A stretch of 64,000 nt of DNA from Apostichopus japonicus (lineage: Eukaryota; Echinodermata; Holothuroidea; Aspidochirotida; Stichopodidae): the NCBI RefSeq assembly GCF_037975245.1, contig NC_092572.1, forward strand, positions 14,016,269 to 14,080,268, in the 5' to 3' direction. Below the pieces are notes generated by a model, which was not told the DNA's origin, ran no database searches, and was given only the letters and a program-made list of their open reading frames with translations. The position numbers and the translations under genes are program-made. How positions within the stretch are numbered: the stretch's first letter is position 1; each line of letters opens with the position of its first letter. Below, one piece after another: positions 20,601-24,860 of the stretch.

Positions 20601-23600
20601 ATTATTTTTCTCTAAATAGAAACAAGACGGAGAATTTGCAGACCTTCAAGAAAAATTTCAAGTAAGTGTGACAAAACTGTGATGAATTCATAGGACAAAA
20701 TATTTTTTTCTTTCTTGTTTTTTATATGTAAACTTTGAATTATATTCTTGATGATTAGTATTTAGACACAGCAGCCATGAAATGACAATCTAGTTTTTAC
20801 TCTAATTATTACTTATTCAAGACGTAATAACAAACAAAAGACAAAAAAACATGAAAACATGTTGAAAGTATCTATATTGTGTTTATATTCGTTTTATAAT
20901 TTACTAACCATACAATTCTTTTCTAACTTCTCATAAATAAATTAATGACTTACAAATTAATATTATTGAATGAATCGGTGTTGTTTTATTTTTTAGTTCT
21001 TTTGCTAATTGTTCATTTAATAAATCCCAATATAAAGGAAGTAATATATTATTCTTTTATTTCTAAATAGCAAAAAGACGGAGAACTTGCAGACCTTAAA
21101 GAACAAATTGAAGTAAGTGTGACAAAGCTGTGATGAATTCATAGGACAAAATAAGTAACCGAATTCTTTTGTTTTGTTATATAAACTTTGAATTTTATTT
21201 TTTAAGGATTGATACTTAGATATGACATCCATAAAATGATCATATTATTTTGTAGTTCTTATTATTACTTATTCAAGAGGTAAAATAATAAAAAAATCTA
21301 AAAACAAAACTGTTGTGATGTTTTAATCGTTCTTTCTATATATTTTCTTTATTAGACTTAGCGTAAAAGATTGGAGATCGTGTTATTAATTATAATAATA
21401 ACTTAGGAGATACACCAACATTTAAGAAAATGAATGTGGTTAGATAAAAGAGTAATTCTTGTCTTTATTAGAGTTCCTGTGTAAGCAGTTATATCATGAA
21501 GATATATAAATTATTGCAAATTGAGTCTAAGGCTTCATATGTATTCTTATAATTGTTGAAAACATGTTGAAAGTATCTATATTGTGTTTATATTCGTTCC
21601 TATAATTACGCGTAGAAAGCAAATGGAGAACTCAAAACTGTTAGGGAGGATCTGACGGCGAAGAATGAGACACTAACGGTATTTAATCTCTAATAACTTA
21701 TTTCAAGAATGCAAGAAGTCAACTTAAATTAATCACGAAAAACAAGTGACACAGGAACACCTTATTTCTTGTATTTTTAGCACCATGGAAACCCATTCAT
21801 GTGTAAATTAGTAATTTAGTTATATTTTGGTTAAAAGTAAATAACTAATACATGTATCAGATTTCCTTTGTTTTTCATACGTTTATTTTCAATACACGGA
21901 AATTATATCACAGGTGAAGATTGTTTCAACGAAAATACAAATACGGACTAAAGGATAATTGATCAACTATACATTAGTGTTACTACACTGTATTGTTTAC
22001 ACTCATCAACAAATTTATGTTGAGACCTATCAACATCAACAGGTAGTCAAGAATAACTTGAACACTAGTTCAGACTGCCCCTATGACATTTTCAAAGTGA
22101 ACTGATTTTAGCTTAAGCGAAAACACAAAATATAAAAAATGCGGTAACCACTCAGGAAGTTTTTCCTGACAATGGAATATGTTTTATTATAATTTACTAA
22201 AAATTAAAACAAAATATTTTCTACTTTCTAATGAATTAATGAAATACGTTAAGATTAATAAATGAATTGGTGTTGTTTTATTATTATATTTATTTGCTAA
22301 TTGTTCATTTAATAAATCTCAATATTAAGGAATTATTTTCTCCTTTCTAATGAATTAATGAAATACAAATTAAGATTCTTAAATGAATTGGTGTTGTTTT
22401 ATCATTATTTGTGTTTGCTTATTGTTCATTTAAAAATATCTCAATATAAAGGAAGTAATATTTTATTCTTTTCTTTCTAAATAGCTCAAAGACGAAGAAC
22501 TTACAACCCTTCAAGGCAAATTTAAAGTAAGTGTGACAAAACTGTGATGAATTCATAGGACGAAATAAGTAACCGAATTTATTTTGTTTTTGTATATAAA
22601 CTTTGAATTCTCTTTTTTTTTATGATTGAAACTTAGATATAACATCCATAAAATGACAATAATTTGTTTTATTCTTATTATTACTTATTCAAGAGGTAAA
22701 ACAGAAATGTAAGAAGAAAACTGTTGTTTTGTTTTAATCGTTTATCTAAATATTTTCTTCATTAAACTTAACCTGTTGAAAGTATTTATGTTTGTTTATG
22801 TTCGTTTATATAACATGAGTGTTACAATACTTTATTGTTTACACGCATCAACAAATTTAGGTTAAGACCTATCAACATCAACAGGTAGTCAAGAATAACT
22901 TGAACTCTAGTTCAGACTGCGCCCATGACATTTTCAAAGTGAACTGCTTTTAATTTAAGAGAAAAAACAAAATATAAAAATGCGTTAACTACTCAGCCAT
23001 TTTTCCTGACAATGGAATATGTTTTATTATAATTTACTAAAAATAAAAAATCATTTTCTACTTTCTAATGAATTAATGAAATACAAATTAAGATTATTAA
23101 ATGAACTGGTGTTGTTTTATTATTATTTGTGTTTGCTTATGTTCATTTAAAAATATCTCAATATAAAGGAAGTAATTTTTTATTCTTTTTTTTTCTAAAT
23201 AGCTCAAAGAGGGAGAACTGACAACCCTTCAAGAAAAATTTAGAGTAAGTGTGACAAAACTGTGATGAATTCATTAGACAAAATAAGTGACCAAATTTAT
23301 TTTTGTTATATAAACTTTGAAATCTATATTTCATGACTGATACTTAGATATAACATCCATAACATGACAATATTTTTTAAATTCTTATGATTACTTATTC
23401 AAGAGGTAAAATAAAAAACAAATTAATATTCTTAAATGAATTGGTGTTGTTTTATTATTATTTGTGTTTGCTTATTGCTCATTTAAAAATATCTCAATAA
23501 AAAGGAATGAATTTTTTATTCTTTTTTTTTCTAAAAAGCTCAAAGACGGGGAACTGACAACCCTTCAAGACAAATTTAAAGTAAGTGTAACAAAACTGTG

Positions 23601-24857: not shown

Positions 24858-24860
24858 ACG
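20620..24860 (+). repeat. Tandem array of 42-nt helical-module exons in the gene 1 tail
   Basis: Seven exons of exactly 42 nt (starting at 20620, 21071, 22485, 23203, 23539, 23874 and 24208), one of 63 nt (21616) and a terminal homologue of the 63-nt exon (24798, stop at 24855-24857). All are phase 0-0. The 42-nt exons encode 14 residues of the form LKEGELTTLQEKFR with hydrophobics at positions 1, 6, 9 and 13; the 63-nt type encodes 21 residues. Fourteen and 21 are two and three heptads, so each exon adds whole heptads. Flanking intron sequence is repeated too: starts of the last four 42-nt exons are 336, 335 and 334 bases apart, which points to recent tandem duplication of whole exon-intron units. 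Every 42-nt exon ends at a GTAAGTGTGACAAA-like or GTAAGTGTAACAAA-like donor. Confidence 0.85.
24798..24857 (+). CDS. Gene 1 last coding exon
   Basis: Reads KTTGELEQVKKDLTENKAK and a TAA stop, one codon before the point where the homologous 63-nt exon at 21616 ends. A GTAACT donor still follows at 24861, so splicing onward to a 3' UTR exon (acceptor at 25579) is likely. If this exon is skipped, the exon at 25580 would add DAAEGQ and then stop. Confidence 0.65.
   Translation, partial: KTTGELEQVKKDLTENKAK

What the first reader, a model, noticed from the sequence alone, without database searches (positions are those of the whole stretch)
20620..24860. Receptor tail assembled from an array of in-phase 42-nt exons, each two heptads long
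Seven exons of exactly 42 nt and two of the 63-nt type, all phase 0-0, encode near-identical 14- or 21-residue helical modules after a TM segment. Any number can be included or skipped without changing frame, and module length is always a whole number of heptads. The unit is duplicated with its intron at about 335-bp spacing, so the array is still expanding. This looks like a genetically and perhaps splice-adjustable ruler or oligomerisation rod inside an Ig receptor. I know of no described receptor tail of this design.
Basis: partly seen in the sequence, partly recalled or inferred. Interest (0 to 1): 0.88.

Follow-up and report, generated by a model that had tools for sequence, protein, structure and literature searches.

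The report
Extendable helical receptor tail, echinoderm
A family of echinoderm cell-surface receptors carries a predicted inner tail built from strings of tiny interchangeable helix-coding exons, a design described in chicken BG receptors and here probably evolved a second time.

Summary
Seven 42-nt and two 63-nt exons (20620-24860), all phase 0-0, join to a signal exon, two Ig exons, a TM exon and two short linkers as one open frame of 433 aa. The genome looks like an echinoderm's (mitochondrial code). The gene is one of nine close copies on one chromosome. Their tails hold from none found to 27 modules: the window gene amplified the 42-nt unit, one paralog the 63-nt unit, another a 54-nt unit. 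Of 52 modules with AG..GT ends, 49 are open in the predicted frame, 5 and 3 in the others. Length is not kept in whole heptads (54, 51, 48 nt occur). Ig1 and TM exons show purifying selection; modules look near-neutral, with excess amino-acid change in one gene. A receptor tail of this design is already described: chicken BG, 21-nt heptad exons. So: a BG-like tail, probably convergent, in an invertebrate Ig family. Splicing, expression and coiled-coil assembly are unproven.

The parts
14563..14617 (+). coding part of predicted exon 1: signal peptide MNLFGISFILVSCLASLC, ends phase 1
   Evidence: better of the two ATG..GT candidates that passed the script's filter; the region matches upstream of all 9 family copies, and these are the only 9 matches the search reported
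16768..17079 (+). Ig1 exon (V-set-like), phase 1-1; an acceptor at 16776 would also fit the frame
   Evidence: Pfam Ig_3 / V-set, below curated cut-offs; PDB profile hits to contactins, Robo, CEACAM; pN/pS 0.45 over 6 copies, p 0.003
17443..17778 (+). Ig2 exon (C2-like), phase 1-1
   Evidence: Pfam Ig_3 / C2-set_2, below curated cut-offs; open in the joined frame
18005..18091 (+). transmembrane exon, phase 1-1 (DKSSARWIIPLVLLIVAIVIIVFLLKYIY)
   Evidence: pN/pS 0.44 over 5 copies, p 0.02
18180..18213 (+). 34-nt basic juxtamembrane linker exon, phase 1-2
   Evidence: 34 nt also in P2, P3, P5, P9; 37 in P7; 35 in the damaged P4; only partial alignments in P6 and P8
18679..18739 (+). 61-nt linker exon (RFNTKTGEQEKELGQKDSLLK), phase 2-0, itself module-like
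   Evidence: lengths 61, 61, 40, 58, 40, 61 in P1, P2, P3, P7, P5, P9, all 1 mod 3; the acceptor AG at this place is absent in P2, P3 and P7 (an AG 12 nt further in would keep the phase); P4, P6, P8 only partial
20620..20661 (+). module 1, 42 nt, KQDGEFADLQEKFQ
21071..21112 (+). module 2, 42 nt, QKDGELADLKEQIE
21616..21678 (+). module 3, 63 nt, KANGELKTVREDLTAKNETLT
22485..22526 (+). module 4, 42 nt, LKDEELTTLQGKFK
23203..23244 (+). module 5, 42 nt, LKEGELTTLQEKFR
23539..23580 (+). module 6, 42 nt, LKDGELTTLQDKFK (AAG acceptor)
23874..23915 (+). module 7, 42 nt, LKEGEMTTLQDKFR
24208..24249 (+). module 8, 42 nt, LKEGELTTLQEKFE
24798..24860 (+). module 9, 63 nt, KTTGELEQVKKDLTENKAK then in-frame TAA: possible C-terminus
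25580..25623 (+). candidate terminal exon; in phase 0 reads DAAEGQ then stop
   Evidence: counterpart with AG before, GT after and an early phase-0 stop in P1, P3, P5 and P9; not found in the stretches held of P2, P4, P6, P7, P8 (partial alignments only)
23075..24380 (+). tandem array of about four exon+intron units, period 336
   Evidence: TRF, 3.9 copies, 92% matches

Best explanation
This is a protein-coding type-I Ig receptor gene of an echinoderm, one of nine close copies on one chromosome. Its cytoplasmic tail is an alpha-helical, coiled-coil-forming rod encoded by an array of small in-phase exons. The array grows and shrinks by unequal exchange of exon-plus-intron units. Because each unit starts and ends in phase 0, gain, loss or skipping of a unit changes tail length without breaking the protein. 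Selection keeps the frame and, in the 63-nt type, the hydrophobic core positions, while other residues drift or diversify. Shown: exon anatomy, open joined frame, paralog arrays, open frames, selection contrast, coiled-coil propensity. Inferred: unequal exchange as the mechanism, that the exons are spliced in, that tails pair into dimers or oligomers and act as a cytoplasmic scaffold or cytoskeletal contact as proposed for chicken BG tails, and that the resemblance to BG is convergent.
For: Joined frame 433 aa. Signal-exon region at 9 of 9 copies. Of 52 modules with AG..GT, 49 open in frame 0, 5 and 3 in the others (no stop filter was used in choosing them). Gap openings between adjacent units: 0 in 1692 exon nt against 96 in 7470 intron nt, my sum of six non-overlapping sets (about 22 expected at the intron rate). 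Ig1 pN/pS 0.45 (p 0.003) and TM 0.44 (p 0.02), while modules are about 1 and P5 2.8 (p 0.009). In 63-nt modules the core positions take 9 of 140 amino-acid changes (26.7 expected) but 7 of 21 synonymous ones. Coiled-coil score, fraction of residues above 0.5: P1 0.68, P3 0.90 (18 of its 27 modules), P5 0.92, P6 1.00, P8 1.00, P9 0.94; Ig controls 0. BG parallels in print.
Against: No RNA evidence. Most arrays show no purifying selection on module residues, which drifting spare exons would also show. The column-permutation test for helical periodicity is weak (period 3.5: 14-mers p 0.41, 21-mers 0.07, 18-mers 0.05). One of two heptad d positions in the 42-nt type, and one of three in the 63-nt type, is Lys, Gln or Glu. 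The best 28-residue score of P3 is no higher than in shuffles (1.57 against 1.56). For 42- and 54-nt modules core positions are not less changeable than others. The module script tried only lengths divisible by 3 and one search used only clean modules, so frame-breaking copies may hide among the 11 of 63 profile hits without a clean exon (one of these only cut by a locus end). 3 of 52 modules hold stops.
Confidence: 0.72

Rival explanations
1. Splice-adjustable ruler: cells choose how many modules to include, so tail length is set per transcript and exact length is functional.
For: All window modules are phase 0-0, flanked by a phase-0 linker end and a terminal exon readable in phase 0; one AAG acceptor; chicken BG transcripts show alternative exon splicing and intron read-through in the tail.
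Against: Clean modules per gene run from none found to 27, and lengths of 54 and 48 nt in modules and 58 nt in the P7 linker are not steps of 21 from the common forms, so exact length is not conserved. No RNA data.
Confidence: 0.12
2. Neutral birth and death of spare exons: a repeat-prone intron region spawns exon copies that are tolerated because they are in frame, with no function for tail length or sequence.
For: pN/pS near 1 for modules within most arrays; exon against intron divergence is similar or higher in P1 (four units 0.091/0.105; seven units 0.198/0.167), P5 (six 0.108/0.085; eight 0.184/0.146), P3 54-nt (0.111/0.138) and P9 (0.042/0.060); hits without a clean exon in P2, P3, P5, P6, P8, P9.
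Against: Exons far more conserved than introns in P3 63-nt (0.032/0.240) and P6 (0.143/0.304); core hydrophobic positions spared in the 63-nt type; few stops.
Confidence: 0.2
3. The window gene is a pseudogene or its modules are never spliced in.
For: In-frame TAA in module 9. Other copies are damaged: P4 has a stop in Ig1; P9 (Ig1 and Ig2) and P8 (Ig2) have 1-nt length changes. The linker acceptor is not conserved in P2, P3 and P7.
Against: The window copy is open from signal to module 9 over 14 junctions; Ig1 and TM exons show purifying selection among the copies compared.
Confidence: 0.08
4. True homologue of chicken BG/butyrophilin, with the heptad-exon tail inherited from a deuterostome ancestor.
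For: Same order: signal, V-like Ig, TM, heptad exons; tandem multigene family. Weak single-sequence PDB matches of Ig1+Ig2 include the B7 proteins ICOS ligand (E 0.0017) and CD80 (E 0.15) (B7 membership recalled).
Against: Window modules are phase 0, BG heptad exons have a split first codon. Units are 42/54/63 nt, not 21. No BTN or BG among the 60 listed of 514 PDB matches to the Ig1 profile; contactins, Robo and CEACAM lead. None of the 9 SPRY matches reported lies on C12.
Confidence: 0.05

Closest known systems
Chicken BG genes (B-G antigens, butyrophilin family): PMC5938342, PMC4046983, PMC5043582, PMC8813856 (passages seen, not whole texts)
   Same: Signal exon, Ig V-like exon, TM exon, then a long cytoplasmic tail from many tiny exons; module number differs between paralogs; higher-order repeats of several exons; tandem multigene family with exchanged segments; predicted coiled coil; amino-acid-changing variation seen in the tail rather than the Ig-V domain (reported for dominantly expressed BG genes, not for BG1).
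   Different: BG: one Ig domain, exons of 21 nt (some 18 or 24) with a split first codon, dimers known. Here: two Ig exons in the window gene, exons of 42, 54 or 63 nt in phase 0, introns of about 290 bp (P1) or 480 bp (P5) in the recent arrays, dimerisation unknown, echinoderm.
Mammalian butyrophilins
   Same: V + C2 Ig domains, TM, short heptad region (PMC8813856, passages)
   Different: Butyrophilins end in B30.2/PRY-SPRY; no SPRY match was reported on this chromosome.
Titin PEVK exons and fibrillar collagen 54-bp exons (recalled)
   Same: Arrays of symmetric in-phase exons encoding length-setting repeats
   Different: Not receptors; different repeat structure. Recalled, not tested.

Membership tests
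Chicken BG family | Extracellular Ig V-like domain in its own exon after a signal exon | tested here: met
   (Pfam scores below curated cut-offs)
Chicken BG family | Single Ig domain | tested here: not met
   window gene has two Ig exons; P5 lacks most of the second
Chicken BG family | Tail of heptads from 21-nt exons with split first codon | tested here: not met
   window modules are 42/63 nt in phase 0, paralogs also 54 and 48 nt; BG feature
Chicken BG family | V domain belongs to the B7/BTN clade | tested here: inconclusive
   Ig1 profile: contactin, Robo, CEACAM lead; no BTN or BG among the 60 listed of 514; single-sequence search lists B7 proteins ICOS ligand and CD80 weakly (60 of 163 listed); no tree made
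Chicken BG family | Disulphide-linked dimer through a CDR1 cysteine | not testable with these tools
Chicken BG family | Variable module number among paralogs | tested here: met
   none found (P4, P7) to 27 (P3)
Butyrophilin (BTN) | C-terminal B30.2/SPRY domain | tested here: not met
   9 SPRY matches reported in the genome, none on C12
Coiled-coil proteins | Heptad pattern scoring as coiled coil | tested here: met
   (matrix recalled from memory; GCN4 control 1.00, Ig controls 0); the periodicity test is weak
Coiled-coil proteins | Helical self-association measured | not testable with these tools
   needs a bench assay

The most novel reading that the evidence does not exclude
Echinoderms independently evolved a BG-like receptor system in which the cytoplasmic coiled-coil rod, not the ectodomain, is the diversified part: exon-array turnover generates new tail lengths and surfaces, tails pair selectively between paralogs, and module choice may also be adjusted by splicing.
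Probability: 0.25. Interest if true: 0.82.

Novelty: new variant of a known kind. Interest (0 to 1): 0.6.

Why it matters
Chicken BG tails have been a puzzle: a long predicted coiled coil from dozens of tiny exons, variable in length, with selection reported in the tail rather than the Ig domain. A second, probably independent, case in an invertebrate Ig family would suggest that an extendable cytoplasmic rod is a recurrent solution. It also supplies a natural series (none found, 1, 9, 12 and 27 modules on Ig1 domains 84-93% identical to the window's) with which the role of tail length and pairing can be tested directly.

Tried and rejected
Rejected: 'no described receptor tail of this design' (BG papers); strict heptad quantisation (54-, 51- and 48-nt modules, linker exon 61, 58 and 40 nt); exact ruler (module counts none found to 27); BTN membership. 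The candidate terminal exon read in another phase (TLQKDNKIELHESN) was set aside because its length is 44 nt in P1 and 43 nt in P5 and P9, while the four aligned copies all stop early in phase 0. Led nowhere: literature searches for an invertebrate counterpart; no row listed describes one (7 rows of 8 papers, 20 of 48, 12 of 40, none found, 3 of 3; listings only). Pfam and PDB searches of joined tails gave generic coiled-coil matches, the Pfam ones below their cut-offs. No eukaryote collection was available to look for the family in other echinoderms. A limit: the whole-genome DNA searches did not report the P6 and P8 arrays, which I found only in fetched stretches, so they do not show that no further arrays exist.

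Full report
WHERE IT IS. The window is C12:14016269-14080268 of a 671.6-Mb genome of 35 contigs. COX1 lies on the 16-kb contig C35 and needs TGA as Trp. Read by table 9, AAA gives Asn at positions that I recall as conserved (GGFGNWLIP, PRMNNMSFW); table 5 puts Lys there. That points to the echinoderm code. Holothuroid affinity (sea cucumber) is a recollection of COX1 sequences, not a test.

THE GENE. Exons: signal 14563-14617, Ig1 16768-17079, Ig2 17443-17778, TM 18005-18091, linkers 18180-18213 and 18679-18739, nine modules 20620-24860, candidate terminal exon 25580-25623. Internal ends are AG/GT and the phases fit. The joined frame is open for 433 codons to the TAA inside module 9, or 420 codons if module 9 is skipped and the terminal exon supplies the stop. 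The TM is followed by a basic stretch (DKREKYAQKKKR), as expected on the cytoplasmic side. The joined tail is 170 aa with all modules. No Y..[LI] motif occurs in the protein from residue 4 on. The signal exon was the better of two candidates passing the script's filter; its region matches upstream of all 9 family copies, and these are the only matches reported. Weak points: the linker acceptor seen in P1, P5 and P9 is absent at that place in P2, P3 and P7, and the terminal exon was found in 4 of 9 copies only.

PARALOGS. A search with Ig1 gave 33 matches; nine, all on C12, are 84-100% identical, the window among them, plus one fragment belonging to the ninth. I name them P1 (window), P2 (14084374), P3 (13994518), P4 (14390842), P5 (14228610), P6 (24999230), P7 (14126403), P8 (24866750) and P9 (14202489). 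Profile searches over the stretches held gave 63 module hits: 52 with clean AG..GT ends (ten of 42 nt, one of 48, eleven of 54, thirty of 63) and 11 without, one of which was only cut by a locus end. The script tried only lengths divisible by 3. After fetching the rest of P3, nine more clean 54-nt modules appear. Clean counts: P1 9, P2 1, P3 27 (7 of 63 nt and 20 of 54 nt), P5 12, P6 5 (the stretch held ends just past the fifth), P8 3, P9 4, and none in the roughly 8 kb held downstream for P4 and P7. Whole-genome DNA searches with 42-, 54- and 63-nt units reported matches only at C12:13.99-14.25 Mb; they missed the P6 and P8 arrays near 25 Mb, so further diverged arrays may exist. P3 repeats a module with a period of 1478 bp in blocks of three (14009307, 14010785, 14012263). 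The window gene amplified the 42-nt unit, P5 the 63-nt unit at about 545-bp spacing, P3 the 54-nt unit; I infer separate amplifications.

FRAME YES, HEPTAD NO. 49 of 52 modules are open in frame 0, against 5 and 3 of 52 in the others; the three with stops are P1 module 9, one P8 module and the P9 42-nt module. Between adjacent units, gap openings are 0 in 1692 exon nt and 96 in 7470 intron nt (my sum of six non-overlapping sets; three overlapping sets also gave 0 in exons). Both results rest on clean modules; frame-breaking copies may hide among the 11 others. Lengths that differ from the common forms: modules of 54, 51 (a P3 copy with a lost donor) and 48 nt; linkers of 58, 40 and 37 nt, all keeping frame, of which only 61 to 40 is a whole heptad; in the damaged P4 the short linker is 35 nt, which breaks frame. 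An 18-residue module still keeps a hydrophobic stripe (18/5 = 3.6), so helix phase is roughly kept.

SELECTION. On minimum-spanning comparisons Ig1 (6 copies; P4, P5, P9 left out) has pN/pS 0.45 (p 0.003), TM (5 copies; P4, P6, P8, P9 left out) 0.44 (p 0.02), Ig2 (P1, P2, P3) 0.51 (p 0.13). Modules: P1 0.96, P3 1.17 (63 nt) and 1.16 (54 nt), P6 0.80, all 42-nt 1.01, all 63-nt 1.19, none different from 1; P5 2.81 (p 0.009) (several sets tested, uncorrected). In 63-nt modules the four hydrophobic core positions take 9 of 140 amino-acid changes (26.7 expected) but 7 of 21 synonymous ones; 42-nt (7 of 36) and 54-nt modules (5 of 24) show no such bias. The core was chosen by hydrophobicity, which partly prejudges the result. 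Exon against intron divergence is mixed: P1 four units 0.091/0.105, seven units 0.198/0.167; P5 six 0.108/0.085, eight 0.184/0.146; P3 54-nt 0.111/0.138; P9 0.042/0.060; P3 63-nt 0.032/0.240; P6 0.143/0.304.

COILED COIL. P3's best single score is no higher than in shuffles. A column-permutation test for periodicity is not significant for 14-mers (0.41) and borderline for 21-mers (0.07) and 18-mers (0.05). Pfam matches are generic coiled coils below cut-off; the one PDB match is a phage tail needle. So helix and coiled coil are likely, not proven; P1 is among the weaker cases.

WHAT IS KNOWN. Passages of four papers on chicken BG genes (PMC5938342, PMC4046983, PMC8813856, PMC5043582) describe a signal exon, an Ig-V exon, a TM exon and a long tail of heptads from 21-nt exons (some 18 or 24), 13 to 36 per gene in one haplotype, 13 to 21 between BG1 alleles, with three- and four-exon repeats, hybrid genes, alternative splicing and read-through, and selection seen in the tail of the dominantly expressed genes but not in their Ig-V domain (BG1 showed none). 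A BG tail was isolated as a protein affecting actin-myosin interaction. The differences (two Ig exons, 42/54/63-nt exons, phase 0, no BTN among the 60 listed of 514 PDB matches of the Ig1 profile, no SPRY match on C12) favour convergence; weak single-sequence matches to ICOS ligand and CD80 count a little the other way. The literature searches listed no paper describing such a tail in an invertebrate; I saw listings only, three of them cut.

MECHANISM. Most likely the modules extend one cytoplasmic helix per chain; chains pair through the weak hydrophobic stripe and present a charged rod to cytoplasmic or cytoskeletal partners, as proposed for BG. Exon-unit exchange makes new lengths without frame damage. 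Splice choice is possible but untested.

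Noticed in passing
paralog P6, C12 24996349-24998586, minus strand (loci L053, L021): Seven tandem copies of the TM exon, each 72 nt, phase 1-1, open and mostly hydrophobic. Either alternative membrane anchors or a polytopic stretch; an even number of inclusions would move the tail outside.
   Followed up: partly
window 40222-47700: A neighbouring stretch with several Ig-like exons and tyrosine-kinase-like exons whose catalytic-loop and DFG-like motifs look altered (HPG for HRD, NFC for DFG by eye; motifs recalled): a receptor pseudokinase candidate.
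   Followed up: no
window 56534-58834: A further stretch with Ig-like exons, beyond the kinase-like one.
   Followed up: no
window 19497-19571: tRNA-Cys(ACA)-like sequence in the long intron before the array; the genome search scored 40 of 1231 candidate places and all 40 are 98-100% identical over 91 bases, so a tRNA-derived dispersed repeat is likely.
   Followed up: partly
window 16001-17520 and 25348-28000: Both ends of the window gene are 95-96% identical to paralog P5, while the stretches between are about 70-88%: suggests segment exchange (hybrid genes) as in chicken BG.
   Followed up: partly
C12:6.36-6.78 Mb and C19:10.46-11.12 Mb: Two further clusters of Ig1-related exons at 35-43% identity, suggesting a larger receptor superfamily. 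Their tails were not looked at.
   Followed up: no
window 28542-29586 and 3094-4139: 93.7% identical blocks downstream of the window gene and of P3: the tandem duplication unit includes downstream DNA.
   Followed up: no
paralog P5, locus L020: Most of the second Ig exon (window 17521-17830 counterpart) is missing relative to the window gene, so P5 probably has a single Ig domain, like BG.
   Followed up: partly
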